Positions 19,033 through 36,140 of a stretch of DNA of 64,000 bases are shown one piece after another (the stretch's first letter is position 1; every line of letters starts with the position of its first letter). The stretch is taken from NCBI RefSeq assembly GCF_000702505.1, contig NZ_JNIM01000001.1:4464001-4528000 (forward strand), given 5' to 3'. The notes under the pieces were generated by a model. The model did not search any database and had not been told where the DNA came from. It saw only the letters and a list, made by a program, of their open reading frames with translations. Origin of the DNA: Thermogemmatispora carboxidivorans (lineage in GTDB: Bacteria > Chloroflexota > Ktedonobacteria > Ktedonobacterales > Ktedonobacteraceae). Made by a program: the position numbers and the translations under genes.

Positions 19033-19830
19033 ATGGCAGCTAGCTCTTCTGGTCCAGAAGATGAGGGGCTTGTGCAGGTGTCACCATCGAGTCTACAGAG
19101 TGCCTCTCATCCTTTTCATATGACAGCCAAGCAGATCTCAGATTTAAGTCAGACACTGCAAACAACGCTACAATGGATGGTTAATGACTCAATGCTCGCT
19201 GCCGAGCTCCTCCGCTATGCTCTTGATATGCAGCAGTTTGGGCTGGCCCTACAGATCTCTATGGAATGTCAGATTCAGGCTCTTCAGCGCATAGGCTTCA
19301 ACCTGGGCCTGACAGGCTTGATCTTTGAGGGGCTGGATCTGCAGCTCCAGCAGCGGTTTGAAGAGGTGGCTTTCCCTGGTTTTGAGCCTGATTTCGAGCC
19401 GAACGGCGCTGTTTTCAGGCCGCAGATGAGTGGTCTGATGCCAGGGCAGGAGCATCCTGGTCTGACCACCGATCAGGAGGGATGGTCAACCAGACCTATC
19501 TCCCCGCAAATCGTGACGACCAATCCCCTCCAGACACCCACCACTGGTAGCTTTGAGCCAGATCCAATCTTGGCGCCAGAGTCGATTTTCACGGCTATTG
19601 CTCCGGAGAATATTGTCCACCCCGAGCAGAACAGTCCTTCACTTCAACTGAAGCAGCAGAATCCTGGTTTGCAGGCTGGTTCTCTATCGCCATCTTCGTT
19701 TGCCCCCAACCCTGAAGGCATATCTCAGCGTAGCTGGCAGCCGCAGCCGCAGCCTCAGCCAGAGGGAGCGGGATGGCAAATCGGACCGGGCATCAGTTTT
19801 CAGCTCCCTTCTTCTGAGGAGGAACCTTGA
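19033..19830 (+). CDS. Alpha-helical protein of unknown function, first gene of toxin island
   Basis: The 265-residue protein has a helical N-terminal region (about residues 30-115, for example ISDLSQTLQTTLQWMVNDSM and FGLALQISMECQIQALQRIG). A disordered Pro/Gln/Ser-rich tail follows with repeated QPQP near the end. It has no signal peptide or membrane helix. AGGGGAGA precedes the ATG, and a strong promoter lies about 50 nt upstream. It is 207 nt upstream of the WXG-deaminase toxin on the same strand, so it could be a targeting partner for toxin export, as small helical proteins are in type VII systems. That role is inference from position only. Confidence 0.6.
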   Translation: MAASSSGPEDEGLVQVSPSSLQSASHPFHMTAKQISDLSQTLQTTLQWMVNDSMLAAELLRYALDMQQFGLALQISMECQIQALQRIGFNLGLTGLIFEGLDLQLQQRFEEVAFPGFEPDFEPNGAVFRPQMSGLMPGQEHPGLTTDQEGWSTRPISPQIVTTNPLQTPTTGSFEPDPILAPESIFTAIAPENIVHPEQNSPSLQLKQQNPGLQAGSLSPSSFAPNPEGISQRSWQPQPQPQPEGAGWQIGPGISFQLPSSEEEP

Positions 19831-20037
19831 TAGATAGTTGCTAGCCGGCGGTCAGGAGTAAGAATCGCTATCTGGCAGTTTCCTGGCCGCCCCTGACTGT
19901 CCTATGCGAGTCGGCAGGCTTTTCCCGCATTGCAATCGTCGCTGGAGCTGAGCGGCTTTCCGACTCCCTGCAGCCTCAGCCTTGGTAGACAGACAGACGG
20001 TGCGTGTTGCTAGCGCATGCTCATGAGAGGAAAGCAT

Positions 20038-21228
20038 ATGGGCAAAGCTGATGATCTTGAACAATTTGCAGATTCCTTGCGTAAGCTAGCCGGCCAATGC
20101 AGCACTACCAAGCAGATCATTGATCAATATATGCAGGGGTTGCAGGGGGTAGTTGACGGATTACAATCGGGCCAGCAGCGCTGGGCAGGCCAGGCAACTC
20201 AGGCATTTCGACAGGCCTGGGCTCAGGCGCGAGGCGATCATCGGCACGTCTCCAACGGCCTGCAGGTGCTCATCAGCTCCTGCCAGACCGTTGCTGATCA
20301 TATCGATCAGGCCGTGCCCGCTATCCGACGCTATGAGCTACTGCAGCAGCTCGAGCAGGAGATGGCTCAGCAGCAAGCTTTGCGCTCTCCGCTCATTGAT
20401 CCTTCGTCGTCTTTCTCCTCATCCTCCTCCGCAAATGCTGATCCGATTCAGCAAGGCTTGGAGGGGGCGATGGAGGAGGCTTCAAATGCCGAGGCGCTGC
20501 TGGCTGCTCTCTTCTCCAGCCAGAGCGAGCAGTTGGAGGAAGCCATGAAAGACCTCGGCTTCTGCAGCACTGGCGAGGAGGAGGACGAGCATGATAGAAT
20601 GAATGACGGAATAAGGGCGCTCACGTCTGCTGATGGCGGAGAGGGGGCGGGCCAGGGACAGCCACCCGCTGAGGATGGACAGCCTGGTTCTGAGGGCCAG
20701 GCATCCGATGAGTCTGGCGTCTCCCTACTGCCAGGCTCAGACCAGCCTTCCCAGCCTGGCTCCAATCAATCTGCCTCTGGCGCGGCCCAGGGATCAAATC
20801 AGACGCTACTCGCTCGTCTTAAGCAAACGTTCAACCAGATAAGGCAAGAGCTGGGATTAGGTCCCTGGAGCCGCAACCCAGATGATGGCCAGACCCTCGC
20901 CGTCGTCTTCGCTCACGGTGAGGACTTTTGGGGTATAAACGGGGAAAATGCACGTGAACCTGAGTTGGACCCAAAGCAAGGGGCAAGGATAAATGCCATT
21001 AGTCCTAGCCATGCAGAGTTAGACGCGCTGAACGATCTTCTGCGCTACAGAAAAGCCAACGGGCTGACTGGAGGAAGTGCAGTACTATGGGTCGATCGCG
21101 AACCTTGTAAGGCCTGTGGCCTGTTTGGTGGACTAAGGAGTGCTGTGCGGATTCTTGGCCTTGACAAGCTTGAGGTCTTCTTTCTTTGCCATGATGGCAC
21201 TCTTGGTCAAATGCTTGTTCAGCCGTGA
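20038..21228 (+). CDS. WXG-type polymorphic toxin with C-terminal deaminase-like domain
   Basis: The 396-residue protein starts at the ATG at 20038, with AGGA six nt upstream. Residues 1-110 are helical and carry a WXG motif in RWAGQATQAF (W49-G51), the hallmark of ESAT-6-like proteins exported by type VII-like systems. A Ser/Gly/Gln-rich linker (about 125-275) separates this from a C-terminal domain. That domain has the two zinc and catalytic motifs of the cytidine-deaminase fold: His325-Ala-Glu327 in SHAELDAL, and Pro356-Cys357-x-x-Cys360 in DREPCKACG. The arrangement matches contact-dependent or secreted toxins that deaminate nucleic acid bases (SCP1.201/DddA/YwqJ groups). The exact subfamily and target are not determined. 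Imm1-like genes follow at once. Confidence 0.8.
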   Translation: MGKADDLEQFADSLRKLAGQCSTTKQIIDQYMQGLQGVVDGLQSGQQRWAGQATQAFRQAWAQARGDHRHVSNGLQVLISSCQTVADHIDQAVPAIRRYELLQQLEQEMAQQQALRSPLIDPSSSFSSSSSANADPIQQGLEGAMEEASNAEALLAALFSSQSEQLEEAMKDLGFCSTGEEEDEHDRMNDGIRALTSADGGEGAGQGQPPAEDGQPGSEGQASDESGVSLLPGSDQPSQPGSNQSASGAAQGSNQTLLARLKQTFNQIRQELGLGPWSRNPDDGQTLAVVFAHGEDFWGINGENAREPELDPKQGARINAISPSHAELDALNDLLRYRKANGLTGGSAVLWVDREPCKACGLFGGLRSAVRILGLDKLEVFFLCHDGTLGQMLVQP

Positions 21229-21292
21229 TTGCTTTTTCTGTCTCTCCTTTTGATTGATTCACATACCGCCTGAAAGGAGGCTGATCACTGCT

Positions 21293-22183: not shown

Positions 22184-22547
22184 CCCCGCTGAAACAAGAA
22201 GCCGTCTTCTCGCAGGCTTAGGCTCCGGCGAGAGGCACCCGGCACTAGCACCAGGAATACAATGCGATAGATGACTGGAGCTGACAGGCTATCCAGCCCT
22301 CCCCCCCTGACGAATCTTTATCAAAAATTTGAGCGGTAAGTACCTCGTTGTCGTCTGCGATGAAGACGGCGAAGTCGTGACCGCCTTCTTCGCCAGGAAT
22401 AGAGAAGAGCTTAACCGATCTGCACGCGCCAACGGCTGGATCTTCGTCAATTGAACACACATTTGGCACCTGCTATACTCGGCTAGAAGCACTCAATGCA
22501 CTGAAGGTCTGTATCCTCAGTCTTGAGAAAGGGGGACAACTGTCACA
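22184..22547 (+). other. Intergenic region with a toxin-like C-terminal remnant
   Basis: The stretch holds no complete gene. It contains the short open frame described separately at 22312-22455 and a GGGGG-containing ribosome-site-like sequence just before the gene at 22548. Confidence 0.4.
22312..22455 (+). pseudogene. Remnant of a toxin C-terminal domain
   Basis: About 48 codons are open after a TGA, with no ATG start. The product includes SGKYLVVVCDEDGEVVTAFF and ends NGWIFVN before a TGA. The pattern of a hydrophobic strand, an acidic turn and then a Thr-Ala-Phe strand is seen at the C-terminal ends of BECR-fold (RelE/colicin E5/EndoU-like) RNase toxins. It lies between an Imm1-like gene and an unknown gene that could be its antidote. 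The fragment is short, so the assignment is tentative. Confidence 0.35.
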
Positions 22548-23372
22548 ATGGTTCAGTGTGGCCCTACTACCTTGCACCAGTCCTTTAGCCTGTGCTTTGA
22601 GCTGGCTGCTTCTCCTCCTGAGACTGCTGATGTTCCTTCCCCACTCTGGCTGCGACTTCTCCTCTATCCCCATCCCGCCTTCGGGTCTTTCTCGCTGCAA
22701 ACACCCTGGACTCCCTGCTCCATGCCTGCTTTCCATCAGCTTCCCGCCTATCTCGAACGCCACCTTGAACTCTTGCACGCTGACCTCGACTCTGAATCCC
22801 CCCCTCTTCAGGCCAACGATCTCCCCTTCCTCCTGCAAGCTTTCGCCGCTGACCTAGCTCCCACGCCCTCAGATTCCCTCTCCTTCCCTATCCGTATTCT
22901 CCTGCAAACTGGCTTCTCTTCACGCTGGTCCTGCCCTGTCTTTGCTGGCGGCGAAGAGACTCTGGCCCTCTCTTCCCTCTCTCAGTTTCTCCCCTGTTGG
23001 CAGCAGGCTTTCGACGCTCTCCCCACCTTATTGCCTTCCCCACCATCCCCCTCACGGACCCTCCCCCCCAGCTACCCCGGCCCTTCTCAACCTCCTTCTG
23101 CGCTACTTCAGGGACTTCCTCCCCAATCCTTCACGCTCTCCCTCCCGACCGAAGGCTACACCTTCCTCCTCTCTCTCTGGCCACTCCCCACCCCCCGAAG
23201 CTACCTGGGCCTTCAGTTCGCGATAGCACTCCCCTGCAGCACAGGCCGATGGTGGTTACATGAACGCACCTCGTCCTTTCTTCCGGCTGCTGATCTCTTC
23301 TCTCCAGCCGACTATTTAGAACACCATTTGCATCAGTGGCAGCGTGACCCTTCCTCTATTTCCCCAGAGTGA
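22548..23372 (+). CDS. Unknown protein, candidate immunity protein
   Basis: The 274-residue Pro/Leu/Ser-rich protein has no signal peptide or membrane helix and no family I recognise. Visible blocks are PLWLRLLLYPHPAFGSFSLQ, FPIRILLQTGFSSRWSCPVF and GYTFLLSLWPLPTPRSYLGL, which suggest beta strands separated by loops. Base composition is strongly pyrimidine-rich like the Imm1-like neighbours. It follows the toxin-like remnant at 22312-22455, a position where antidote genes are usually found. The start is uncertain: AAAGGGGG lies about 13 nt before the ATG. Confidence 0.5.
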   Translation: MVQCGPTTLHQSFSLCFELAASPPETADVPSPLWLRLLLYPHPAFGSFSLQTPWTPCSMPAFHQLPAYLERHLELLHADLDSESPPLQANDLPFLLQAFAADLAPTPSDSLSFPIRILLQTGFSSRWSCPVFAGGEETLALSSLSQFLPCWQQAFDALPTLLPSPPSPSRTLPPSYPGPSQPPSALLQGLPPQSFTLSLPTEGYTFLLSLWPLPTPRSYLGLQFAIALPCSTGRWWLHERTSSFLPAADLFSPADYLEHHLHQWQRDPSSISPE

Positions 23373-23396
23373 ACCAGCTCTGAGCTTGATCTCCCC

Positions 23397-23790: not shown

Positions 23791-24246
23791 CCATCGCCCC
23801 AGCAGCTTCCTCGCCATGACCTGACCTGGGATGAGCAGCAGGGTGGCCATACCCTCTCCCGCCATGTCAACGTGACTGAGGATCAGGTCCGCCAACGGGC
23901 TGAACAGAGAGCTGGTGAGGCACGTCAGAGGATCATCGCAGCGCAAAGAAGAGGCCGCTTACGCGGACAAGATCCTAATGCAGTTACTGCTCAAGCAAGT
24001 GCTTTTTACTCTCTCGATAGAGCAGAGGAGGCCATCCAATATGTCCTTGATCACAGCACTCCACAACAACTGCCTAATGGACGAATGATCTACTCAGGCA
24101 CCTTTCTCGAGAATGTAGGCTATGTCTACACCTATGACTGGCAAACGAGCACGTTCGTGCGCAGTGAAGCCGATGCACTTCTCATCGTCATAGAAACTGC
24201 TCCCGATGGCACAACCTTTATCTTGACAGCCTACCCTATCCTGTAG
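23791..24246 (+). pseudogene. Orphan RNase A-like toxin cassette, unit 1
   Basis: The frame is open for 151 codons from a TAA at 23788-23790, but its first possible start is a GTG at 23872. The conserved part begins before that: GGHTLSRHV at 23842-23868, followed by TEDQVRQR, ASAFYSLDRAEEAIQYVL and a final FILTAYPIL. This order (Gly-Gly-His-Thr-Leu...His-Val, then Thr-x-x-Gln, then the TAE-like helix, then the closing LTAYP strand) is the pattern of the bacterial RNase A-like toxin domain found at C-termini of CdiA and related toxins. Without a delivery domain or start codon it looks like a silent toxin cassette. It is the most complete of three copies. Confidence 0.65.
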
Positions 24247-24320
24247 AGTGCGATGGAGCATATACACTGAGAAGAGCCAGACGTTCTTACATCTTCTAAT
24301 CAGCCAGAAGGAGGATGATC

Positions 24321-25741
24321 ATGCTGACCTTCACTCGTCACCCCCTGACTGACAGGCCCCTATCACAGCCAGTGATCGCGGCGCTTACAGATGGTCCAGA
24401 GAATCGGGTCGGCGTCGCCCTCCTCACCACCGCTGAAGCTACAACCAGTCCTGCAGAAAACTCCATCTGCCAGCTTGGGGAACTCTCTCTTTCCACTCCT
24501 TCTCAACCGGGACGCCTGCGCCTCTGGCAGGGTAAAATCCTTCCCCCTCGTGCCACCGCGGATCTCCTCCTTACTTACTCCCCTTCTCTTCAGGAATGGC
24601 TGCTGCTGCTAGGTAGTGAACAACAGCTATCCTTCTACCGTAGGTTTCCCTCTCAAGAACTCTGGCTTCATCTCTGGTCAATCGGTCATGACTTTCCCCG
24701 AAGAGGGCCGCGCTTTCCCCTTGAATTCTGGACTCATCAGGGGGAAAGCTTTCTCCTCTTCCTCGAGCAGGAAGGATCTGTAGATGAGGTCTCTGACGAC
24801 TCTCTCTTCTTCTGCCGCTGGAAGCAGTCCTATCCCACCGATGAGATGCTCCTGCGCCGCCAGACCTTCTGTGATCGAGTCTGCACTTTGCCCAGCCAGC
24901 ACCAGGTTGTTCTTGCTCTCTGCCAACGCTCCTTGGAGTTGACCTCACCACCCAGCACTCTGCGTCGCGGCCCCGGCCTCTGGCGCCTCGGCCTGGAAAC
25001 CTTCTCCCTCTCCTCCGGCCAGCTCCTCTCCTCCTTCTGGCCCGACCACCTCTCCCTGCCCATCCGCTCCCTCTCCTTCCCCTCCGACGACCTCCTCGAC
25101 CACTACCTCCCTTCCCTCTCCCTCGCCTCCGGCCCCTCCGACCCCAATGGCTCCCCCTCCTACTTCGCCGCCCTCTCCCTCCCCCTGCAGGCTCCCTCTC
25201 GCCCTCACGACCACCTCTCTCGACCCGCCGTCCCCCCACAGGGCGTCGGCTCCCTCTTCTGGCTCTCCTCCTCCCTTGCTCCCCTCTCCTCCCTCCCCTG
25301 GCTCGGCGCTTTCCCCTCCCTCGTCCCCTCCGGCTCCTCCCTCTTCGGCTCCGACCTCTTCCTCGACTCCTGGCGCCTCTGGCGCTGGCTCCCCTCCTCT
25401 CCTTCTCCCTCCTCCTTCCTCCTCCTTGACTCCTTCCCTGCCGACCCTTCCTCCTTCTTCTCCCTGCTCGCTCCTTCCTCCTCCTCTCCTTCTTCACACC
25501 CTCCTACTCACTTCTGGTCCCTACTCGCTTCCCCCAACCAGCTCCTCCTCTCCCTCCGCCGCTCCTCCGACGGCTCCCTCCTCGACTCTCCCTCTCTCTC
25601 CCCCACCTGCGCCCTCCCTTCCCCAACCCTGAGGTTCTTCCCGCTCTCGCCCTCACCGACCCCGACGGCTCCCCTCGCCTCGTCCTCCTCGCCTCCGACT
25701 CCAATGGCTCCCTCTCCCTCGTCGAGGTCTTCCCCTCCTGA
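24321..25741 (+). pseudogene. Large unknown protein, copy 1 (CT-slippage frameshift)
   Basis: The gene starts at the ATG at 24321 with AAGGAGG six nt upstream. It encodes about 215 residues shared with copy 2 (MLTFTRHPLTDRPLSQPVIA...), then a C-terminal half nearly identical to copy 3 (RRGPGLWRLGLETFSLSSGQ onward). Near 25587-25602 this copy has two extra bases in a CT-rich run compared with copy 3. The frame therefore shifts and runs on to 26063, over the start of the next gene. Restoring the frame gives the copy-3 ending (LSLVEVF) at 25741. It follows the RNase A-like cassette by 75 nt, suggesting an antidote or accessory role. The family is not recognised; repeats of the type DPNGS/DPDGS are visible. 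Confidence 0.55.
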
Positions 25742-26001: not shown

Positions 26002-26895
26002 ATGACCTCGCCCCTTTCCTGGCTGCTCTTCCTCGGCTCCCAAGCCGAGGAGGAGATCTCTGACCCCTCCTGGTCCCAGATCGCCGACGCCTTCCACTCC
26101 CTCGACGGCCAGTGCAGGCGCCGCGACGCCCTCATTCTCTGCTGCCCCAGCTACGGCACTCTCCATATCTGCGGCGGCAACTCCCTGCGCTTCCTCGTCT
26201 TCTTCGAGCTGGGACCCGAATGGCTTGCCTCCTTCGCTACGGCCCGCTTTGTCCCTACCCGCTATCTGCAGGCCGTCGATCTGGACCAGGCCGGCCCCGA
26301 CCTGCCCCTCTGCTTGCAGCCCCCCTTCTTCTCCCCCTCCTACACCGCCCTCTCCTGGCCCCGCCTCATCCAATCCGTCCGCTCCTTCGTCGAGAAAGGC
26401 CAGCTCTACCACAAGTGGGAGATCGAGACCGAACCGGCCCCCCCTTTCCTTCCTGTTCCCCCCTCCTCCCTCGTCGCCTCCCCTCACGCTTCCTCTCCCT
26501 CCCTCCTCGTCCTCGGTCCCTCCTCCTCCCAGTCCTTTCCCTCCCCCGACTGGTCCGACCTGGAAACCTCCCTCTTCTGCCTCGACGGCCATTCCCTCAC
26601 CCACGCCTTCTTTTCCCGCCCCGACCGCGGCACCCTCGCCGTCCTCGGCGGCCTCCAGCAACGCTACGCCCTCTTCTTCTTCCCCCACGACCAGCGCTTC
26701 CCGGTTCTCTCCCTGCAGGCCATGGATCCCTCCCTGGCCGGTCCCGAAGTCGAGCTGTGCATCCAGACCCCCGCTGCCTTCCCGTCACGCCTCGCCATCC
26801 GCCAACCCCTCGCCTGGCACATCCTCCAGCACTTCTATCACACTCTAACCATCCCCCGTGATGTCCACTGGCTCCTCGGTGTTACACCCCAGTGA
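26002..26895 (+). CDS. Double Imm1-like immunity protein, copy a2
   Basis: The 297-residue paralogue of a1 has domain 1 DPSWSQIADAFHSLDGQ with LHICGGNSLRFLVFF, and domain 2 PDWSDLETSLFCLDGH with TLAVLGGLQQRYALF. The start ATG at 26002 follows AAGGAGG at 12 nt, the spacing kept across the family. The frameshifted copy 1 of the large gene reads through into its first codons. It is the 'a' member of repeat unit 1. Confidence 0.7.
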   Translation: MTSPLSWLLFLGSQAEEEISDPSWSQIADAFHSLDGQCRRRDALILCCPSYGTLHICGGNSLRFLVFFELGPEWLASFATARFVPTRYLQAVDLDQAGPDLPLCLQPPFFSPSYTALSWPRLIQSVRSFVEKGQLYHKWEIETEPAPPFLPVPPSSLVASPHASSPSLLVLGPSSSQSFPSPDWSDLETSLFCLDGHSLTHAFFSRPDRGTLAVLGGLQQRYALFFFPHDQRFPVLSLQAMDPSLAGPEVELCIQTPAAFPSRLAIRQPLAWHILQHFYHTLTIPRDVHWLLGVTPQ

Positions 26896-27145: not shown

Positions 27146-28063
27146 ATGACATCGTTCATGTCCTGGCTGCTCTCCCTCGGCTCCCCAGCCGAGGAGGTGC
27201 TCACCGATCCCTCCTGGTCCCAGATCAGCGACGCCTTCCTCTCCCTCGACGGCCAAAGCCCTCGCAGCTGCTGGCTCTCCCTCACCAGTCCTCAGCAGCA
27301 GTCGCTGACCATCTGCGGCGGCCACTCCCTGCGCTACCTCGTCCTCTTCCACCCTCGCCCTCCCAAGCCCGCTCTGGCCCACCCGTTCCCCACCCGCTCC
27401 CTTCAGGCCCTCTACCTCTTTCAGTCCGGTCCCGACCTGCCCCTCTGCCTGCAGCCTCCTCTCCTCTCCCCCTCCTACGCCACCCTCCCCTGGTCTCCCC
27501 TCCTTCACCTCGTTCGCCACTTCTGGCAGACCGGCCTGCTCCTCCTTCACTCCCCACAGCACCCTCAGATCGCCTGGTCCCTCCAGACCGATCCTCCTCC
27601 CTCCTCTCTCCCCACACTCCCTCCCCCACAGCCCGATTGGTCTTCTCCCTCCACCCTCTTCCTGCAGGGCCCCAGCGTTTCCCAACCCTTCCTCGAACCA
27701 GACTGGTTCGAGTTGAGTACCGCTCTATGCCACCTTGACGGCCAGACGCTCACCCATGCCTTCTTCTCTCGCGCCAACCGCGGCACCCTCGCCGTCCTCG
27801 GCGGCCTCCAGCAACGCTACGCCCTCTTCTTCTTCCCCCACAACCAGCACTTCCCTGTCACCTCCCTCCTCGCCTTCGATCCCTCTCTCGCTGGCCCCGA
27901 CATCGAAGTCTGCAGCCAGCCCCCTACCAGCTCCCCCTCACGCACGGCCGTCCAGCAGCCGCTCGCCTGGCGCATCCTCCAGCACTTCTATCACACCCAG
28001 ACTATTCCCCGTGATGTCCACTGGCTCCTCGATGGCCAACCCAACCCTGCTCTAGCTAACTAA
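27146..28063 (+). CDS. Double Imm1-like immunity protein, copy b1
   Basis: The 305-residue protein has domain 1 DPSWSQISDAFLSLDGQSP with LTICGGHSLRYLVLF, and domain 2 PDWFELSTALCHLDGQ with TLAVLGGLQQRYALF. It belongs to the 'b' type with a different first loop (SPRSCWLSLTSPQQQSLT) and the shared ending PRDVHWLLDG. AAAGGAGG lies 12 nt before the ATG at 27146; the frame further upstream has no ribosome site. Confidence 0.7.
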   Translation: MTSFMSWLLSLGSPAEEVLTDPSWSQISDAFLSLDGQSPRSCWLSLTSPQQQSLTICGGHSLRYLVLFHPRPPKPALAHPFPTRSLQALYLFQSGPDLPLCLQPPLLSPSYATLPWSPLLHLVRHFWQTGLLLLHSPQHPQIAWSLQTDPPPSSLPTLPPPQPDWSSPSTLFLQGPSVSQPFLEPDWFELSTALCHLDGQTLTHAFFSRANRGTLAVLGGLQQRYALFFFPHNQHFPVTSLLAFDPSLAGPDIEVCSQPPTSSPSRTAVQQPLAWRILQHFYHTQTIPRDVHWLLDGQPNPALAN

Positions 28064-28317
28064 CGCCAAGGGCTGCACCCCTCTTCCTGCCGCCCTATCC
28101 CGCAGGCCCTCAGCATCACCTCCGGCTGACCTCGCTGGGGGCCTGCTCCCTCCCTGCCCTCGCTCTCCTCTCCTTTCTCAGCTCGAACCTGTCCCCCAAC
28201 TTCCGGCTCCTCTCGCCACGGCTCCTCTCGCCGACTTCCTCGGCTCCTTCCCCTCAACGGCCCCAACCTCCCTGCACTGACCACCCACTGAGGACAGACA
28301 GCCTGGCTCAGAGACGA

Positions 28318-28485
28318 GTGGTCTACTCAGGCACCTTTCCCGAGAACGTCGGCTATGTCTACACCTATGACTGGCAAACAAGTACGTTCGTGCGTAGTGA
28401 AACCAATGCACTTCTCATCGTCATAGAAACTGCTCCCGATGGTACAACCTCTATCTTGACAGCCTACCCCTACCCTCTCCTGTAG
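28318..28485 (+). pseudogene. RNase A-like toxin fragment, unit 2
   Basis: The 55 codons preceding the TAG at 28483-28485 encode VVYSGTFPENVGYVYTYDW, then ALLIVIETAPDGTTSILTAY. This is nearly identical to the last part of the unit-1 cassette but lacks the GGHTL...HV half. It is a truncated, inactive copy placed 85 nt before copy 2 of the large gene, exactly as in unit 1. Confidence 0.6.
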
Positions 28486-28569: not shown

Positions 28570-29655
28570 ATGCTGACCGTCACTCGTCACCCCCTGACTG
28601 ACAGGCCCCTATCACAGCCACTGATCGCGGCGCTGACAGATGGTCCAGAGAATCGCGTCGGCGTCGCCCTCCTCACCGCCGCTGAAGCTACAACCAGTCC
28701 TGCAGAAAACTCCATCTGCCAGCTTGGGGAACTCTCTCTTTCCACTCCTTCTCAACCAGGACGCCTGCACCTCTGGCAGGGTACAATCCTTCCCCCTCGC
28801 GCCACCTCGGATCTCCTCCTTACTTACTCCCCTTCTCTTCAGGAATGGCTGCTGCTGCTAGGTAGTGAACAACAGCTATCCTTCTACCGTAGGTTTCCCT
28901 CCCAACAACGCTGGCTTCCTCTCTGGTCAATCGGCCATGACTTTCCCCAAAGAGGCCCCCGCTTTCCCCTTGAATTCTGGACTCATCAGGAGGAAAGCTT
29001 GCTCCTCTTCCTCGAGCAGGAAGGATCTGTAGATGAGATCTCTGACGACTCTCTTCTTCTGCCGCTGGAAGCAGTCCTATCCCACCGATGAGATGCTCCT
29101 GCGCCGCCAGACCTTCTGCGATCAAGTCTGCACTTTGCCTCGCCAGCACCAGGTTCTTCTTGCTCTCTGCCAACGCTCCTTGGAGGTGACCTCTCCACCC
29201 AGCACTCTGCGTCGCGGCCCCGGCCTCTGGTGCCTCGGCCTGGAAACCTTCTCCCTCTCCTCCGGCCAGCTCCTCTCCTCCTTCTGGCCCGATCACCTCT
29301 CCCTGCCCATCCGCTCCCTCTCCTTCCCCTCCGACGACCTCGTCGACCACTACCTCCCTTCCCTCTCCCTCGCCCCTTGGCCCTTCCGACTCCAATAGCT
29401 CCCCCTCCTACTTCGCTGCCCTCTCCCTCCCCCTGCTGGCTCCCTCTTCCGGCACTCCTCCTCTCTTGATCCCCTCTCCTCCCTCCCCTGGCTCGGCGCT
29501 TTCCCCTCCCTCGACTCCTGGCACCTCTGGCGCTGGCTCCCCTCTCCTTCCTCCTGGCTCCTCCTCGACTCCTTCCCTCTCTCCCACCTGCGCCCTCCCT
29601 CGCCCTCATCGACCCTGACGGCTCCCTCTCCCTCGTCGAGGTCTTCCCCTCCTGA
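28570..29655 (+). pseudogene. Large unknown protein, copy 2 (frameshifted and internally deleted)
   Basis: It starts at the ATG at 28570 with AAGGAGG six nt upstream. The first 160 codons match copy 1 almost exactly. At about 29048-29062 one CT is missing relative to copy 1, so the frame stops at 29091. The matching sequence continues in another frame through RRGPGLWCLGLETFSLSSGQ, shifts again near 29370, and has lost several hundred bases before the conserved end (LVEVFPS, stop 29653-29655). It is clearly a decayed copy. A conserved hairpin follows at 29691-29729. Confidence 0.65.
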
Positions 29656-29901: not shown

Positions 29902-30795
29902 ATGACCTCGTCCCTTTCCTGGGTGCTCTTCCTCGGCTCCCAAGACCCTGAAGAGCTCCTTGACCCCTCCTGGTCCCAAATCACCGACGCCTTCTTCTCC
30001 CTCGACGGCCAGTGCGTCCGCCGCGACCTGCTCATTCTCACCTGCCCCAGTTATGGCTCCCTTCATTTCGGCGGCGGCAACTCCCAGCGCTTCCTCGTCT
30101 TCTTCGAGCCTGTACCCGCCTGGGTGGCTCCTCACACTGCCGCCCGCCTCACTTCTACTCGCTTTCCTACTCGCTACCTCCAGGCCGTCGACCTGGACCA
30201 GACCGCTTCCGACCTGCCCCTCTGCCTGCAGCCCCCAGTCTCCTCCCCCGCTTACGCCGTCCTCTCCTGGCCCCGCCTCTCCCAGCTCGCCCGCCGCTTC
30301 TTTGAGAAAGGCAAGCTCGACGGCTACTGGGAGATCGAGACTGAGCCCGCTCCGGCTTTCTTGCCTGTTCCCCCTGCTCCACCGGCTGACTCCCCCCACC
30401 TCTCCTCTCCCTCCCTCCTCGTCCTCGGTCCAACCTCCTCCGACTCCTTCCCTCTCCCCAACTGGTCCGACCTGGAAACCGCCCTCTTCTGCCTCGACGG
30501 CCACTCCCTCACCCACGCCTTCTTTTCCCGCCCCGACCGCGGCACCCTCGCCGTCCTCGGCGGCCTCCAGCAACGCTACGCCGTCTTCTTTTTCCCCCAG
30601 GGTCAGCCCCTCCCAGTTTTCTGGCTGCAGGCCATGGACCCCTCCCTGGCCGGCCCCGACGTCGAACTGTGCATCCAGGTCTGTGTCGAGTGGCCCTCGC
30701 GCACTGCCGTCCGGCGGCCGCTCGCCTGGCACATCCTGCAGCACTTCTACCAGACCCTGACCATTCCCCGCGATGTTCACTGGCTCTCCCTTTAA
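29902..30795 (+). CDS. Double Imm1-like immunity protein, copy a3
   Basis: The 297-residue paralogue shows DPSWSQITDAFFSLDGQ with LHFGGGNSQRFLVFF in domain 1, and PNWSDLETALFCLDGH with TLAVLGGLQQRYAVF in domain 2. It is almost identical to the copy at 34187-35080. The start ATG at 29902 follows AAGGAGG at 12 nt. It is the 'a' member of unit 2. Confidence 0.7.
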   Translation: MTSSLSWVLFLGSQDPEELLDPSWSQITDAFFSLDGQCVRRDLLILTCPSYGSLHFGGGNSQRFLVFFEPVPAWVAPHTAARLTSTRFPTRYLQAVDLDQTASDLPLCLQPPVSSPAYAVLSWPRLSQLARRFFEKGKLDGYWEIETEPAPAFLPVPPAPPADSPHLSSPSLLVLGPTSSDSFPLPNWSDLETALFCLDGHSLTHAFFSRPDRGTLAVLGGLQQRYAVFFFPQGQPLPVFWLQAMDPSLAGPDVELCIQVCVEWPSRTAVRRPLAWHILQHFYQTLTIPRDVHWLSL

Positions 30796-30946: not shown

Positions 30947-31855
30947 ATGACGGCGCTCCATCCCTGGCGGCTCGCTCTCGGCTCCCAAGACCAGGTCGCG
31001 ATCCTTGACCCTTCCTGGTCCCAGATCTCCGACGCCTTCTTCTCCCTCGACGGCCAAAGCCCTCGGACCTGTCGGCTCTCCCTCACCAGTCCTCAGCAGC
31101 AGTCTCTCACCATCCGCGGCGGCCACTCCCGGCGCTTCCTCGTCCTCTTCGACCCCAGCCCCTCCAGGCCCGCTCCGGCCCCTCTCATCCCTACCCGCTC
31201 CCTGCAGGCCGTACACCTCCACCAGACCGGCCCGGACCTGCCCCTTTGCCTGCAGCCCCCTCTCCTCTCCCCTACCTACGCCACTTTGTCCTGGCCCCTC
31301 CTTGTTCCCATCGCCCGCCACTTCCTCGCCCACGGCGAGCTCTACCGCTCCCTCCCCCACCAGCCAGACTTAGGCTGGACACTCGAAACCGACCCTCCCC
31401 CTCACACCCTCCCTGTGCCCCCCTCCCCACGACCTGACCTCGCTCACACCCCCACCCTGCTCGCGCTGTCTCCTGATACCTCCGACCTCTCCGTCGCACC
31501 AAACTGGCACACCCTCATCACCACGCTGGCCTTCCTTGACGGCCAAATTGTCACCCACGTCTTCCTCACCCTCCCTGACCGCGGCACCCTCGCCATCGTC
31601 GGCGGCTTCCAGCAACGCTACGCCGTCTTCTTCTTCCCCCACAACCAGCGCTTCCCTGTAGAAACCCTCCTCGCCTTCGATCCCTCTCTCGCTGGCCCCG
31701 CAGTCTCGGTCTGCACCCAGCCTCCTACCAGCTCCCCCGCTCGCACCGCCCTCCAGCAGCCGCTCGCCTGGCGCATCCTGCAGCACTTCTATCACACCCA
31801 GACTATTCCCCGTGATGTCCACTGGCTCCTCGATGTCCAACCCTTCTCTAGCTAA
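30947..31855 (+). CDS. Double Imm1-like immunity protein, copy b2
   Basis: The 302-residue 'b'-type protein shows DPSWSQISDAFFSLDGQSP with LTIRGGHSRRFLVLF in domain 1, and PNWHTLITTLAFLDGQ with TLAIVGGFQQRYAVF in domain 2. It is nearly identical to 35232-36140. AGGAGG precedes the ATG at 30947 by 12 nt. The second domain has drifted from the 'a' type more than the first, consistent with different toxin specificity. Confidence 0.7.
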   Translation: MTALHPWRLALGSQDQVAILDPSWSQISDAFFSLDGQSPRTCRLSLTSPQQQSLTIRGGHSRRFLVLFDPSPSRPAPAPLIPTRSLQAVHLHQTGPDLPLCLQPPLLSPTYATLSWPLLVPIARHFLAHGELYRSLPHQPDLGWTLETDPPPHTLPVPPSPRPDLAHTPTLLALSPDTSDLSVAPNWHTLITTLAFLDGQIVTHVFLTLPDRGTLAIVGGFQQRYAVFFFPHNQRFPVETLLAFDPSLAGPAVSVCTQPPTSSPARTALQQPLAWRILQHFYHTQTIPRDVHWLLDVQPFSS

Positions 31856-32068: not shown

Positions 32069-32368
32069 TTGACCCCGCTCCCTGCCCAGCCAGATCACCC
32101 CCTATCGCCCGCCCATCTGCTCATGCCCCTACAAACTGCCGAGGAGGCTGTCCAGTACGCCCTTGATCATGGTACTGCAGGTATTCCTCGCCGGGGCCCT
32201 GGTGGTACAATAAGGACTACCTATAGAGCTACTTGCCCAGAAATGATCGGCTACGTCTATGCGGCAGATCGCTCCCGCTACGAAACAGCCAATGTCGAAG
32301 TAGTCCTTGTTACCCGTCCCGATGGGTCAAGCTTTGTCTTGACAGCTTTCCCAACTCGGAGACCCTAG
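32069..32368 (+). pseudogene. RNase A-like toxin fragment, unit 3 (variant type)
   Basis: The frame begins at a TTG; an ATG lies at 32123. It encodes LQTAEEAVQYALDHG, then MIGYVYAADRSRYET and a closing VVLVTRPDGSSFVLTAFP. The layout matches the second half of the unit-1 cassette, but the sequence is clearly diverged, and the GGHTL...HV half is absent. It lies just upstream of copy 3 of the large gene, whose N-terminal half is also a different type. Confidence 0.55.
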
Positions 32369-32423
32369 TATCCTGCTAAAATGTGCAATCTAATGCAGCT
32401 CTACCATTCCGGAGGTGCCTGTG

Positions 32424-33911
32424 ATGCTCTCTCACACCCTTCACCGCCTTCCCACTCAGGCCCAAGACCGTCCCTTGCTCTCTCCTCTGGCAGCTGCCCC
32501 CAATGGTCACGTTGGTTTCTTCCTGGCTGCCCCAGAGATTAAGCTGCCAGCGTCACAACCTTTCCCCCCTGGCCCCACTTCTCTATCTTGTTCTCTTGGC
32601 ATCCTTACCAGCCCTCGAGCAGTCCCACCCAATTCGAGACTGCAATTCCTTCCTCTTCACTTTAGGCCAGCCTTATCCTCCTCTGTCCTCCTGCGCCCTG
32701 CCCCTCAGTACCAGGGCTGGTTGCTCGCCTCCACTCCTCGCGACTCCCTTTCTCTCTACCTCTTCGGCTACCCCTCATTCGAAGCTTACCCCGACCCCGA
32801 TGCGGCCCGGGCTGCTGCCTTTGACCCTTCCTGGCGCGACCTCGACTCCTGGTTGATTAGCCGCAGCACCTATACCTTTTTCGAAGAAAAAAGACCGCTC
32901 CAGCTGCTTTGCCAGCCGGAGCAGGTCTTCCTGGTCTTCCTCCAGTTCCCAGAAGACGAGATCGCCGATGCCACGCTCTTCCTGCTGCAGTGGCTCCCCG
33001 AGCAGCCCCACCGTCCCCCCCAGCTGCTCACGCTCGCCCTCTTCGATGATGTCTCCGTGCTCCACCTCCCCCCTGACCTGCTGCTGAGCGCCGGCATCCG
33101 CCGCTTCCTGGAGCCTGGTCCCGCCAGCCTCGAACGCCGCGGCCCCGGCCTCTGGCGCCTCGGCCTGGAAACCTTCTCCCTCTCCTCCGGCCAGCTCCTC
33201 TCCTCCTTCTGGCCCGACCACCTCTCCCTGCCCATCCGCTCCCTCTCCTTCCCCTCCGACGACCTCCTCGACCACTACCTCCCTTCCCTCTCCCTCGCCT
33301 CCGGCCCCTCCGACCCCAACGGCTCCCCCTCCTACTTCGCCGCCCTCTCCCTCCCCCTGCGGGCTCCCTCTCGCCCTCACGACCACCTCTCCCGACCCGC
33401 AGTCCCCCCACAGGGCGTCGGCTCCCTCTTCTGGCTCTCCTCCTCCCTTGATCCCCTCTCCTCCCTCCCCTGGCTCGGCGCTTTCCCCTCCCTCGTCCCC
33501 TCCGGCCCCTCCCTCTTCGGCTCCGACCTCTCCCTCGACTCCTGGCGCCTCTGGCGCTGGCTCCCCTCCTCTCCTTCTCCCTCCTCCTTCCTCCTCCTCG
33601 ACTCCTTCCCCGCCGACCCTTCCTCCTTCTTCTCCCTGCTCGCTCCTTCCTCCCCCTCTCCTTCTTCACACCCTCCCTCTCACTTCTGGTCTCTGCTCGC
33701 CTCTCCCAACCAGCTCCTCCTCTCCCTCCGCCGCTCCTCCGACGGCTCCCTCCTCGACTCCCTCTCTCTCCCCCACCTGCGCCCTCCCTTCCCCAGCCCA
33801 AGAGTTCTTCCCGCTCTCGCCCTCACCGACCCCGACGGCTCCCCCCGCCTCGTCCTCCTCGCCTCCGACCCCAACGGCTCCCTCTCCCTCGTCGAGGTCT
33901 TCCCCTCCTGA
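32424..33911 (+). CDS. Large unknown protein, copy 3 (intact), candidate immunity protein
   Basis: This 495-residue protein is the only intact member. The ATG at 32424 has GGAGG eight nt upstream. Residues 1 to about 235 (MLSHTLHRLPTQAQDRPLLS...) do not resemble copies 1 and 2. From RRGPGLWRLGLETFSLSSGQ on, the sequence is nearly identical to copy 1. The C-terminal half is Ser/Pro/Leu-rich with repeated Asp-Pro-Asn/Asp-Gly-Ser turns (DPNGSPSYFAAL, DPDGSPRLVLLA, DPNGSLSLVEVF), possibly a repetitive beta fold. There is no signal peptide or membrane helix. Position behind a toxin fragment in all three units suggests an antidote whose N-terminal half sets specificity. The family is not recognised. 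Confidence 0.6.
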   Translation: MLSHTLHRLPTQAQDRPLLSPLAAAPNGHVGFFLAAPEIKLPASQPFPPGPTSLSCSLGILTSPRAVPPNSRLQFLPLHFRPALSSSVLLRPAPQYQGWLLASTPRDSLSLYLFGYPSFEAYPDPDAARAAAFDPSWRDLDSWLISRSTYTFFEEKRPLQLLCQPEQVFLVFLQFPEDEIADATLFLLQWLPEQPHRPPQLLTLALFDDVSVLHLPPDLLLSAGIRRFLEPGPASLERRGPGLWRLGLETFSLSSGQLLSSFWPDHLSLPIRSLSFPSDDLLDHYLPSLSLASGPSDPNGSPSYFAALSLPLRAPSRPHDHLSRPAVPPQGVGSLFWLSSSLDPLSSLPWLGAFPSLVPSGPSLFGSDLSLDSWRLWRWLPSSPSPSSFLLLDSFPADPSSFFSLLAPSSPSPSSHPPSHFWSLLASPNQLLLSLRRSSDGSLLDSLSLPHLRPPFPSPRVLPALALTDPDGSPRLVLLASDPNGSLSLVEVFPS

Positions 33912-33949
33912 CCCCCTTCCTCCCCCTCCCTCCCTCCCTCTGCTGCCAG

Positions 33950-33988
33950 ACCGTCCTGGCTCTCTCTCTCACCCCCAGCCAGGACGGT
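33950..33988 (+). repeat. Conserved intergenic hairpin, copy 3
   Basis: The ACCGTCCTGGCT/AGCCAGGACGGT stem is repeated with a 15-nt loop. The flanking DNA up to the next start codon is nearly identical to that after copy 1. Confidence 0.55.
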
Positions 33989-34186
33989 TCGGTTCACCCC
34001 CTCCACCCGCTACCGCTTCTCCCTCCCCCCGTCGGAAGATTCTCCCAGATGCGTTGCATCTGCCCCCGGCATGCCCGGCGCTTTCTCATCCGCTGGGACA
34101 GATGCGTCTTCCTGTACCGTGACAGTCGTCTTTCTCCGTTGCTCTACAGCTCACCCACACACAACACAAGGAGGTTGATCACTGCT

Positions 34187-35080
34187 ATGACCTCGTCCCT
34201 CTCCTGGGTGCTCTTTCTCGGCTCCCAAGACCCTGAAGAGATCCTTGACCCCTCCTGGTCCCAAATCACCGACGCCTTCTTCTCCCTCGACGGCCAGTGC
34301 GTCCGCCGCGACCTGCTCATTCTCACCTGCCCCAGTTATGGCTCCCTTCATTTCGGCGGCGGCAACTCCCAGCGCTTCCTCGTCTTCTTTGAGCCTGTAC
34401 CCGCCTGGGTAGCTCCTCACACTGCCGCCCGCCTCACTTCTACTCGCTTTCCTACTCGCTACCTCCAGGCCGTCGACCTGGACCAGACCGCTTCCGACCT
34501 GCCCCTCTGCCTGCAGCCCCCAGTCTCCTCCCCCGCTTACGCCGTCCTCTCCTGGCCCCGCCTCTCCCAGATCGCCCGCCGCTTCTTTGAGAAAGGCGAG
34601 CTCGACGGCTACTGGGAGATCGAGACTGAGCCCGCTCCGGCTTTCTTGCCTGTTCCCCCTGCTCCGCCGGCTGACTCCCCCCACGCCTCCTCTCCCTCCC
34701 TCCTCGTCCTCGGTCCAACCTCCTCCGACTCCTTCCCTCTCCCCGACTGGTCCGACCTGGAAACCGCCCTCTTCTGCCTCGACGGCCACTCCCTCACCCA
34801 CGCCTTCTTCTCCCACCCCGACCACGGCACCCTCGCCGTCCTCGGCGGCCTCCAGCAACGCTACGCCGTCTTCTTTTTCCCCCAGGGTCAGCCCAACCCA
34901 GTTTTCTGGCTGCAGGCCATGGACCCCTCCCTGGCCGGCCCCGACATCGAACTGTGCATCCAGGTCTATGTCGAGTGGCCCTCGCGCACTGCCGTCCGGC
35001 GGTCGCTCGCCTGGCGCATCCTGCAGCACTTCTACCAGACCCTGACCATTCCCCGCGATGTTCACTGGCTCTCCTTTTAA
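34187..35080 (+). CDS. Double Imm1-like immunity protein, copy a4
   Basis: The 297-residue protein is nearly identical to a3, with DPSWSQITDAFFSLDGQ and PDWSDLETALFCLDGH as the two domain starts and TLAVLGGLQQRYAVFFF near the end. Only scattered substitutions separate them, for example EILDPSW for ELLDPSW. The start ATG at 34187 follows AAGGAGG at 12 nt. It is the 'a' member of unit 3. Confidence 0.7.
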   Translation: MTSSLSWVLFLGSQDPEEILDPSWSQITDAFFSLDGQCVRRDLLILTCPSYGSLHFGGGNSQRFLVFFEPVPAWVAPHTAARLTSTRFPTRYLQAVDLDQTASDLPLCLQPPVSSPAYAVLSWPRLSQIARRFFEKGELDGYWEIETEPAPAFLPVPPAPPADSPHASSPSLLVLGPTSSDSFPLPDWSDLETALFCLDGHSLTHAFFSHPDHGTLAVLGGLQQRYAVFFFPQGQPNPVFWLQAMDPSLAGPDIELCIQVYVEWPSRTAVRRSLAWRILQHFYQTLTIPRDVHWLSF

Positions 35081-35231
35081 ACACGCTGGCACAGACACCT
35101 TGATGACGCTCGGGAGCCGGGGAGCAGCCCTTCTCCTCCTCTTCCTCATCGCTGCTGCTCCCCTCTCCTGGCTCGCCCTGCTTCTTCCCTCATGTGCACA
35201 TGACCGACACCACAGGAGGTTGCTTGTACCC

Positions 35232-36140
35232 ATGACGGCGCTCCATCCCTGGCGGCTCTCTCTCGGCTCCCAAGACCAGGTCGCGATCCTTGACCCTTCC
35301 TGGTCCCAGATCTCCGACGCCTTCTTCTCCCTCGACGGCCTCAGCCCTCGGACCTGCCGGCTCTCCCTCACCAGTCCTCAGCAGCAGTCTCTCACCATCC
35401 GGGGCGGCCACTCCCTGCGCTTCCTCGTCCTCTTCGACCCCAGCCCCACCAGGCCCGCTCCGGCCCCTCTCATCCCTACCCGCTCCCTGCAGGCCGTACA
35501 CCTCCATCAGACCGGCCCGGACCTGCCCCTTTGCCTGCAGCCCCCTCTCCTCTCCCCTGCCTACGCCACCCTGTCCTGGCCCCTCCTTGTTCCCATCGCC
35601 CGCCACTTCCTCGCCCACGGCGAGCTCTACCGCTCCCTGCCCCTCCAGCCAGACTTAGGCTGGACACTCGAAACCGACCCTCCCCCTCACACCCTCCCTG
35701 TGCCCCCCTCCCCACGACCTGACCTCGCTCACACCCCCACCCTGCTCGCGCTGTCTCCTGATACCTCCGACCTCTCCGTCGCACCAAACTGGCACACCCT
35801 CATCACCACACTGGCCTTCCTTGACGGCCAAATTGTCACCCACGTCTTCCTCACCCTCCCTGACCACGGCACCCTCGCCATCGTCGGCGGCCTCCAGCAA
35901 CGCTACGCCGTCTTCTTCTTCCCCCACAACCAGCGCTTCCCTGTAGAAACCCTCCTCGCCTTCGATCCCTCTCTCGCTGGCCCCGCAGTCTCGGTCTGCA
36001 CCCAACCTCCTACCAGCTCCCCCGCTCGCACCGCCCTCCAGCAGCCGCTCGCCTGGCGCATCCTGCAGCACTTCTATCACACCCAGACTATTCCCCGTGA
36101 TGTTCACTGGCTCCTCGATGTCCAACCCTTCTCAAGCTAA
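35232..36140 (+). CDS. Double Imm1-like immunity protein, copy b3
   Basis: The 302-residue 'b'-type protein is almost identical to b2 (DPSWSQISDAFFSLDG, LTIRGGHSLRFLVLF, PNWHTLITTLAFLDGQ, TLAIVGGLQQRYAVF). From the a4 start to the b3 stop is 1954 nt, exactly the length from the a3 start to the b2 stop. This shows a very recent duplication or ongoing gene conversion. It is the last gene of the island. Confidence 0.7.
   Translation: MTALHPWRLSLGSQDQVAILDPSWSQISDAFFSLDGLSPRTCRLSLTSPQQQSLTIRGGHSLRFLVLFDPSPTRPAPAPLIPTRSLQAVHLHQTGPDLPLCLQPPLLSPAYATLSWPLLVPIARHFLAHGELYRSLPLQPDLGWTLETDPPPHTLPVPPSPRPDLAHTPTLLALSPDTSDLSVAPNWHTLITTLAFLDGQIVTHVFLTLPDHGTLAIVGGLQQRYAVFFFPHNQRFPVETLLAFDPSLAGPAVSVCTQPPTSSPARTALQQPLAWRILQHFYHTQTIPRDVHWLLDVQPFSS

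What the first reader, a model, noticed from the sequence alone, without database searches (positions are those of the whole stretch)
19033..36140. Toxin/immunity island: WXG-deaminase toxin followed by seven double Imm1-like genes
A secreted-type toxin with WXG and deaminase motifs (HAE, PCxxC) heads a 15-kb one-strand array. Seven paralogous genes each encode two Imm1-like domains. A poly-immunity array this large, built from two-domain Imm1-like proteins and interleaved with RNase A-like toxin fragments, is not one I know of. It suggests defence against many related toxins or a reservoir for toxin switching.
Basis: partly seen in the sequence, partly recalled or inferred. Interest (0 to 1): 0.88.

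Follow-up and report, generated by a model that had tools for sequence, protein, structure and literature searches.

The report
Toxin locus with fossil toxin tails
A bacterium carries one probable secreted cell-to-cell toxin gene followed by a long string of protective genes and broken ends of earlier toxins, a readable record of toxin replacement that resembles arrays known from staphylococci and cholera bacteria.

Summary
A WXG100 + MafB19-type deaminase gene (20038-21228) heads a one-strand array of seven two-domain Imm1-like genes. Between them lie three 3' remnants of RNase A-type toxins, each followed by its own immunity-like gene (ImmR). Correction: Pfam's Imm1 match is below its cut-off and only in second halves. 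But the second half aligns with a bona fide Imm1 encoded beside a 40%-identical deaminase in Nostoc, and the two halves are homologous.

Comparison within the genus explains the array. A sister genome has the island at the same site with six double-Imm1-like genes, and there one RNase A tail still follows a broken piece of the present toxin's linker: a displaced end of an earlier allele of this gene. Two other genomes keep scars, one an empty site. These three lack a detectable EssC ATPase; both array carriers have it. Paralogues are mosaics, most of them exchanged more recently than the flanks diverged.

Best reading: a type VII-secreted polymorphic toxin locus whose tip was replaced repeatedly, with old immunity genes kept and reshuffled. 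The kind is known (Staphylococcus EsaG/TsaI, Vibrio T6SS). New: double-Imm1-like proteins, ImmR, and T7SS/array co-occurrence (small n). The phylum, probably Chloroflexota, is recalled, not tested.

The parts
18959..18988 (+). promoter-like site TTGACA-18-TATATT upstream of the island's first gene
   Evidence: consensus scan, 11 of 12 matches; 6 promoter-like sites in 18600-36400 against a mean of 1.5 in shuffles; not evidence of function; this stretch is missing in sister genome G003
19033..19830 (+). 265-aa protein without a Pfam match, upstream of the toxin (inferred export partner; start uncertain, perhaps 19120)
   Evidence: ORF kept in G003 from residue 20 on (90% identity, dN/dS 0.32), frame broken in G001, which lacks a detected EssC
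20038..21228 (+). toxin: WXG100 domain (20071-20310), linker (about 20560-20790), MafB19-type deaminase (profile match 20881-21156) with HAE and PCKAC
   Evidence: PF14437 30.2 bits > 27; WXG100 27.1 bits in hmmscan and 30.3 bits in the six-frame search; deaminase region 40% identical to a Nostoc protein that also passes PF14437
21293..22183 (+). double Imm1-like gene 1 (type A), 64 bp after the toxin, predicted cognate immunity gene
22548..23372 (+). 274-aa protein of unknown family, pyrimidine-rich like the immunity genes; besides itself one marginal match (E 6e-4, 61 residues, G004) in 31 genomes searched
23797..24246 (+). RNase A-type toxin tail RA1: whole domain, no start codon before GGHTLSRH, preceded by stops and a marginal linker trace
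   Evidence: PF18431 34.4 bits > 27
24321..25740 (+). ImmR1, predicted RNase A immunity gene, reading frame shifted near 25580 (my reading; end approximate)
26002..26895 (+). double Imm1-like gene 2 (type A); 98.5% identical in DNA to the first Imm1-like gene of sister genome G003
27146..28063 (+). double Imm1-like gene 3 (type B)
28281..28484 (+). RNase A-type toxin tail RA2: 3' end only (from about 28303), overlapped at its start by a 33-nt linker remnant (28281-28313)
28570..29652 (+). ImmR2, frame broken (end approximate)
29902..30795 (+). double Imm1-like gene 4 (type A)
30947..31855 (+). double Imm1-like gene 5 (type B)
32069..32368 (+). RNase A-type toxin tail RA3: N-terminal part missing here; its counterpart in G003 covers the whole profile
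   Evidence: PF18431 19.1 bits, below cut-off; G003 copy 48.7 bits, over the cut-off, positions 1-113
32424..33911 (+). ImmR3, the only fully open ImmR gene of the window; its N-terminal part differs together with RA3
34187..35080 (+). double Imm1-like gene 6 (type A)
35232..36140 (+). double Imm1-like gene 7 (type B)

Best explanation
This is a polymorphic toxin locus of the type VII secretion kind. Inferred: the WXG100 domain directs the protein to the genome's EssC/YukD/WXG100 machine, encoded about 3 Mb away on the contig; the C-terminal deaminase damages nucleic acid of a recipient cell; the adjacent double Imm1-like protein protects producer and kin. Shown by comparison: in the sister genome a downstream RNase A tail follows a broken piece of the present toxin's own linker, so it is a displaced 3' end of an earlier allele of the same gene; the other tails carry weaker traces or none. 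Shown: an RNase A tail and the 5' part of the ImmR gene behind it differ together while the 3' part follows another pattern, as expected if ImmR is the RNase A immunity gene and its N-terminal part the specific part. Shown: the Imm1-like paralogues are mosaics, a stretch of about 3.7 kb between two of them is absent in the sister genome (loss there or gain here, not settled), and two relatives keep only scars. So new tips arrive by recombination, old immunity genes are retained and homologous recombination reshuffles them. Protection of kin that still carry older toxin alleles, and a store for new specificities, are inferred benefits.
For: Families. Imm1 link: the gene 8 bp behind a 40%-identical MafB19-type deaminase in Nostoc is a bona fide Imm1 (60.3 bits, cut-off 22.4), and our second-half profile aligns with it over 106 columns (hhalign 78.9%, E 1.6e-5). 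Two-domain structure. Toxin linker upstream of the RNase A domain in G003: local score 138 against a maximum of 27 in 300 shuffles; 62-76 nt linker scar in G005: 80 against 31; RA2 in both genomes: 41 with 0 of 300 shuffles reaching it; RA1: 33 with 1 of 300. RNase A domain of G003 passes PF18431 at 48.7 bits. Site between the M20-type peptidase gene and hutU: array in G000 and G003, scars in G001 and G005, no remnant found in G002. EssC at E<=1e-50 in 3 of 6 genus genomes, G000, G003 and G004, not in G001, G002, G005; 1 of 14 controls. T7SS locus: WXG100 44.2 bits, YukD 55.6 bits, FtsK/SpoIIIE 302.8 bits in adjacent genes. Tail/ImmR co-variation: RA1-RA2 90%, RA1-RA3 57%; ImmR 5' 570 nt 96% against 46%; ImmR 3' part, ImmR1-ImmR3 98%. 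dN/dS: hutU 0.06, M20 0.10, WXG+linker 0.10, deaminase 0.40, seven Imm1-like pairs 0.39-1.1; dS 0.015-0.126 in six of these seven pairs against 0.27-0.36 in the flanks. Mosaics.
Against: No experiment. Imm1 score below the curated cut-off; 0 of 7 N-halves match Pfam and the N-half profile hardly aligns with the Nostoc Imm1 (5%, 45 columns). The gene behind the Rhizobium relative of the deaminase has no Pfam match. The PF14430 search at E<=1 also rings in 3 of 14 control genomes. Structure models are poor (pLDDT 50 and 53), so no fold confirms Imm1. RA3 of the window shows no linker trace (274 of 300 shuffles score as high) and that of RA1 is marginal. Some recent pairs have dN/dS near 1 (W3-S2 1.1, W4-S3 1.04; W4-W6 0.85), which is also what relaxed selection gives. 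The T7SS/array co-occurrence rests on five related genomes with readable sites; G004 has EssC, no detected array, and a contig end at the site. G003 is a draft and repeats can be misassembled.
Confidence: 0.8

Rival explanations
1. Tandem duplication of one 4-kb unit (RNase A tail - ImmR - Imm1A - Imm1B) made the array; no successive toxin replacements took place.
For: Three units of similar order with spacings of 3.9-4.3 kb; genes 4/6 and 5/7 are 97.6-97.9% identical.
Against: The RNase A tails and ImmR 5' parts of units 2 and 3 are only 47-55% identical while the Imm1-like genes after them are 98% identical, so the toxin-specific part was exchanged; one tail in G003 follows the toxin's own linker. 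Duplication plus replacement is likely.
Confidence: 0.25
2. A stand-alone poly-immunity shield: the double Imm1-like proteins mainly neutralise deaminase toxins of other strains, and the local toxin is incidental.
For: Seven open paralogues with fast protein evolution (dN/dS 0.39-1.1) against one toxin; published reading of polyimmunity loci (PMC3482391, section 39).
Against: The array is missing in 3 of 3 genus genomes without detectable EssC and present in 2 of 2 EssC-positive genomes with a readable site; Zhang et al. state that polyimmunity loci are never interrupted by toxin cassettes, and this one is.
Confidence: 0.2
3. A decaying island: only the toxin and the first immunity gene matter, and the rest is debris still open because pyrimidine-rich DNA has few stops.
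For: Off-frames have only 2-7 stops per gene; 2 of 3 ImmR genes here are frame-broken; some dN/dS near 1.
Against: 13 of 13 double Imm1-like genes in two genomes are open over their full length; dN/dS of the four distant paralogue pairs tested is 0.44-0.68 (close pairs 0.28 and 0.85); GGAGG before 7 of 7.
Confidence: 0.15

Closest known systems
T7SS immunity gene arrays of Staphylococcus aureus (EsaD/EsaG, TspA/TsaI) and streptococcal TipC, PMC9484751 (passages and discussion section read)
   Same: T7SS toxin followed by a string of non-identical immunity paralogues, intergenic recombination through conserved blocks (esaG, tipC), copy-number change, and a toxin 3' fragment inside the tsaI cluster
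   Different: Deaminase and RNase A tips, two-domain Imm1-like proteins, several toxin tails per array, each with its own ImmR gene; presumably another phylum (untested)
Vibrio cholerae T6SS immunity gene arrays by sequential effector displacement, PMC5361080 (abstract and passages read)
   Same: New effector-immunity module pushes the old effector's 3' end and immunity genes downstream
   Different: T6SS instead of T7SS; there the retained genes are cognate to several effector types, here mainly one repeated Imm1-like family plus ImmR
Polyimmunity loci and polyimmunity proteins, PMC3482391 (passages and section 39 read)
   Same: Tandem immunity genes of one type on one strand and several immunity domains in one protein
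   Different: Those loci are said never to contain toxin cassettes; Imm1 is not among the homogeneous loci named in section 39; section 39 names proteobacteria, bacteroidetes, firmicutes and actinobacteria for extended loci
MafB19-type deaminase + Imm1 pair of Nostoc commune HK-02 plasmid5 (AP018331.1)
   Same: 40% identical deaminase followed 8 bp downstream by an Imm1 gene
   Different: One single-domain Imm1 above cut-off, no WXG100 match in the toxin and no array in the 3.3 kb seen
DddA immunity protein (PDB 6u08)
   Same: Immunity protein of a deaminase toxin; appears at rank 14 (Z 3.8, 74 residues) for a low-confidence model of the second domain
   Different: Match too weak to support a shared fold; no useful sequence match in the PDB

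Membership tests
MafB19-like deaminase (PF14437) | score above the curated cut-off | tested here: met
   30.2 bits against 27, residues 289-380
MafB19-like deaminase (PF14437) | [HCD]xE and CxxC motifs of deaminase toxins (as given in PMC3482391) | tested here: met
   HAE and PCKAC here, HAE and PCGYC in G003
MafB19-like deaminase (PF14437) | deaminase activity and toxicity | not testable with these tools
   needs expression
WXG100 / T7SS effector | WXG100 domain above cut-off | tested here: inconclusive
   27.1 bits against 27.3 by hmmscan, 30.3 bits in the genome search
WXG100 / T7SS effector | EssC-type ATPase and partners in the genome | tested here: met
   WXG100, YukD and FtsK/SpoIIIE in adjacent genes; TIGR03928 640.6 bits over positions 8-1252 of 1296 but under its cut-off of 778.4, a model made for Firmicutes
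WXG100 / T7SS effector | secretion by the T7SS | not testable with these tools
   needs an export assay
Imm1 (PF14430) | score above the curated cut-off | tested here: not met
   second halves 14.0-17.4 bits against 22.4, 0 of 7 first halves match. Hence called Imm1-like, not filed as Imm1
Imm1 (PF14430) | homology to a bona fide Imm1 | tested here: met
   second-half profile against the Nostoc Imm1: 78.9%, E 1.6e-5, 106 columns; first half not: 5%, 45 columns
Imm1 (PF14430) | aromatic residue and W near the C-terminus (immunity table of PMC3482391) | tested here: met
   W invariant in all 14 half-domains
Imm1 (PF14430) | adjacent to a deaminase toxin gene | tested here: met
   64 bp downstream here; same arrangement for the related Nostoc pair. 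PMC3482391 names SCP1.201 deaminases as partner, not MafB19
Imm1 (PF14430) | Imm1 fold | tested here: inconclusive
   models with pLDDT 50 and 53; no confident match
Bacterial CdiA-CT RNase A (PF18431) | whole domain above cut-off | tested here: met
   RA1 34.4 bits, G003 48.7 bits, 0 of 14 controls; RA2 and RA3 of the window are truncated
Polyimmunity locus (Zhang et al. 2012) | not interrupted by toxin genes or cassettes | tested here: not met
   three RNase A tails inside the array
Displacement-type immunity array | displaced 3' toxin ends with retained immunity genes | tested here: met
   linker-RNase A tail in G003, tails followed by ImmR
Displacement-type immunity array | copy number differs between close relatives, recombination among paralogues | tested here: met
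   7 against 6 genes, 22209-25978 absent in G003, mosaics, scars
Displacement-type immunity array | retained immunity proteins neutralise the former toxins | not testable with these tools
   needs co-expression

The most novel reading that the evidence does not exclude
The two-domain Imm1-like proteins are bivalent, each half binding a different deaminase variant, and the RNase A tails are a silent store: recombination at the shared linker can put an RNase A tip back onto the WXG100 part, so that the lineage alternates between a deaminase and an RNase weapon while already holding both immunities. ImmR would be a new immunity family for bacterial RNase A toxins with a modular, toxin-matched N-terminal domain.
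Probability: 0.3. Interest if true: 0.68.

Novelty: new variant of a known kind. Interest (0 to 1): 0.5.

Why it matters
Displacement-type T7SS toxin/immunity arrays are described from Bacillota; this one lies, if my untested guess of the phylum is right, in Chloroflexota. One genus shows several stages of the cycle: full array, array with an older tail still joined to its linker, two different scars, and an empty site. It offers a test of whether retained immunity genes serve kin protection or toxin switching, and a candidate new immunity family (ImmR) for bacterial RNase A toxins.

Tried and rejected
Genome-wide relatives: two scans of genome contigs (gene 1, then alignment A1) gave 48 and 68 pattern matches and no confirmed relative; the tool says that records near the window may be left out. 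No call names its phylum: Chloroflexota, Ktedonobacteria and Thermogemmatispora (a search term) are recalled guesses. hutU and 23S rRNA against plasmids gave only distant matches (about 66-70% identity in the rows listed) and did not settle it.

Wider spread: 4 of 47 genomes of the class match alignment A4, namely G000, G003, the G001 scar and one single-domain protein near a contig end in G013; that protein has no Pfam match at E<=0.05, so it does not bridge to Imm1. The toxin matches in 2 of 61 relatives, G000 and G003. In plasmids its deaminase part matches 5 records; I looked at two. The gene behind the Nostoc one is Imm1, the gene behind the Rhizobium one has no Pfam match although it aligns with the Nostoc Imm1 at 31%.

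Structure: AlphaFold models of the whole protein and of the second domain are poor. Foldseek gave no match at E<=0.001. VIA-align listed 6u08_F at rank 14, Z 3.8, among unrelated rows; not used as evidence.

PDB sequence searches with the second-domain profile, the toxin and RA1 gave no useful match. PADLOC gave nothing relevant for the 10 proteins scanned.

Reading open frames alone as selection was dropped, because the pyrimidine-rich DNA leaves the other frames long too.

Literature: in the listings and the passages read I saw no description of a double-Imm1 array or of a T7SS immunity array in Chloroflexota; the library holds open-licence papers only and the listings are capped.
Full report
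What is there. The window lies at 4,464,001-4,528,000 of a 5.6-Mb single-contig genome. Between a peptidase gene of the M20 type (17397-18608, minus strand; best NCBIfam model below its cut-off) and hutU (36366-38078, plus strand; TIGR01228 977.6 bits) lies a one-strand island of about 17.7 kb. Its order is: helper protein, toxin, double Imm1-like gene 1, a 274-aa protein, then three times [RNase A tail - ImmR - Imm1-like A - Imm1-like B].

Toxin. 20038-21228 has an N-terminal WXG100 domain (27.1 bits by hmmscan, just under the cut-off of 27.3; 30.3 bits in the genome search), a linker and a MafB19-type deaminase domain (30.2 bits, cut-off 27) with HAE and PCKAC. A search with WXG100 finds two places at E<=0.01 in the genome: this toxin and a 125-aa protein next to YukD and an EssC-like ATPase. 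So a T7SS core exists about 3 Mb away on the contig, and this toxin is the only large protein with a detected WXG100 domain. In plasmid records the deaminase part (residues 267-396) matches ends of a HecA-type adhesin, an RHS-repeat protein and others at 40-42% (5 records), so the same tip is used by other delivery systems. Export and activity are inferred.

Immunity genes. The seven paralogues are 58-74% identical to the first. Each consists of two halves that align as profiles (98.8%, E 5.7e-17); 16 columns are invariant over all 14 half-domains, including a C-terminal W. PF14430 is the only Pfam family that the seven whole proteins reach at E<=1 (6 of 7); as halves, 7 of 7 second halves reach it and 0 of 7 first halves, always below its cut-off. 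A six-frame search of the genome with PF14430 finds these 7 genes and nothing else at E<=1; the same search rang, below cut-off, in 3 of 14 control genomes. Independent support comes from Nostoc commune HK-02: a protein whose deaminase part is 40% identical to ours and passes PF14437 (35.3 bits) is followed 8 bp downstream by a bona fide Imm1 (60.3 bits), and our second-half profile aligns with that Imm1 over 106 columns (78.9%, E 1.6e-5). The first-half profile does not do so convincingly (5%). I call the genes Imm1-like and do not file them as Imm1, because the cut-off is not met. They fall into type A (genes 1, 2, 4, 6) and type B (3, 5, 7) by nucleotide identity.

RNase A tails and ImmR. 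The frame 23797-24246 covers the whole PF18431 model (34.4 bits, cut-off 27), but its only start codon lies behind the conserved GGHTLSRH motif and stops precede it. The other two tails are truncated. Each is followed by a long gene; the two scanned (ImmR1 and ImmR3) and the start of ImmR2 have no Pfam match. Of the three ImmR genes only the third is fully open. RNase A tail and ImmR 5' part differ together: RA1-RA2 90% and ImmR1-ImmR2 96%, but RA1-RA3 57% and ImmR1-ImmR3 46%. The ImmR 3' part follows another pattern, with ImmR1-ImmR3 98%. The N-terminal parts of ImmR1 and ImmR3 are still distant relatives (27%, E 2e-6). This is what one expects of a toxin-matched N-terminal immunity domain.

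Comparison within the genus (six genomes held, unnamed). Both flanking genes mark the site in five of them. G003 has the island with six double Imm1-like genes and the toxin at 95% identity. It lacks window 22209-25978, and its first Imm1-like gene aligns with both gene 1 and gene 2 of the window, as after recombination between genes 1 and 2; whether this is a loss there or a gain here is not settled. In G003 the third RNase A domain (48.7 bits) is preceded by a piece of about 120 nt of the present toxin's linker (score 138, shuffle maximum 27) in which the frame is broken. The same linker appears as a scar in G005 (80 against 31), as a 33-nt piece before RA2 in both genomes (41, 0 of 300 shuffles) and marginally before RA1 (33, 1 of 300), but not before RA3 of the window. 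G001 keeps the helper region, frame-broken, and the last part of an Imm1-like gene beside hutU, with everything between absent. G002 has about 215 bp between the aligned flanks without a detected remnant. In G004 the contig ends at the peptidase gene, so the site cannot be read.

T7SS and array. EssC is found at E<=1e-50 in G000, G003 and G004 and not in G001, G002 and G005 (1 of 14 controls, Bacillus subtilis). Of the five readable sites, array and EssC are both present in two and both absent in three. The sample is small and the genomes are related.

Evolution. Between G000 and G003 the flanks have dS 0.27-0.36 and dN/dS 0.06-0.10. WXG plus linker has dS 0.08 and dN/dS 0.10, the deaminase 0.20 and 0.40. 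The seven best Imm1-like pairs have dS 0.015-0.126 in six cases (0.26 for gene 1 with S4) and dN/dS 0.39-1.1. So most of the array has been exchanged or homogenised after the flanks diverged, and its proteins change fast or under relaxed constraint. Sliding comparison shows mosaics: S4 begins like S6/W5, continues like W1 and has a stretch in the middle like W4; S6 is W5-like with a 3' end 97-100% identical to W3. The G003 gene next to its toxin is the counterpart of window gene 2, not of gene 1, so the adjacent immunity gene differs where the deaminase tip differs.

What is known. Garrett et al. 2022 (PMC9484751; passages and discussion read) describe strings of T7SS immunity paralogues, recombination through conserved blocks in esaG and tipC, and a toxin 3' fragment inside the tsaI cluster. 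Kirchberger et al. 2017 (PMC5361080; abstract and passages read) give the displacement model for Vibrio. Zhang et al. 2012 (PMC3482391; passages and section 39 read) link Imm1 to SCP1.201-type deaminases and state that polyimmunity loci are never interrupted by toxin cassettes. The present locus works like the first two and fails that defining feature of the third. The T7SSb review PMC10765036 (passages read) notes WXG100 sequences in Chloroflexota; the passages that I saw describe no toxin there.

Verdict. Real, well explained by analogy, and informative as a comparative series. It is a new variant of a known kind. The parts with most novelty are the double Imm1-like proteins, the ImmR family and the linker-bearing displaced tail.

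Noticed in passing
21293-36140: The immunity-type genes are strongly pyrimidine-rich on the coding strand (C+T 0.67-0.73 in the seven Imm1-like genes, the 274-aa gene, ImmR1 and ImmR3) while toxin, RNase A tail RA1 and six other genes compared have 0.48-0.54; fourfold sites are 83-90% pyrimidine in the Imm1-like genes, but hutU and the peptidase also reach 76-77% there. Cause unknown.
   Followed up: partly
44699-47810: A 23S rRNA gene lies on the minus strand; the plus-strand ORFs there are spurious.
   Followed up: yes
22548-23693: A 274-aa gene and a following 98-aa ORF between Imm1-like gene 1 and RA1 have no known family (only the first was scanned) and are missing in G003; a promoter-like site lies at 22451-22479.
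   Followed up: partly
L021:3645-4010: A single-domain relative of the Imm1-like repeat stands near a contig end in another genus of the family (G013); what follows it is not held.
   Followed up: partly
L073 (G050:C15:1083-1871): In a distant genome of the phylum one open frame of 381 aa carries two RNAse_A_bac domains in tandem, both above cut-off.
   Followed up: no
18816-19096: The promoter-like site and the first codons of the helper gene are absent in G003 although the rest of the gene is kept, so the true start may be 19120.
   Followed up: no
L077:1852-2226: The gene 3 bp behind the Rhizobium relative of the deaminase has no Pfam match but aligns with the Nostoc Imm1 at 31% identity: perhaps another divergent Imm1.
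   Followed up: partly
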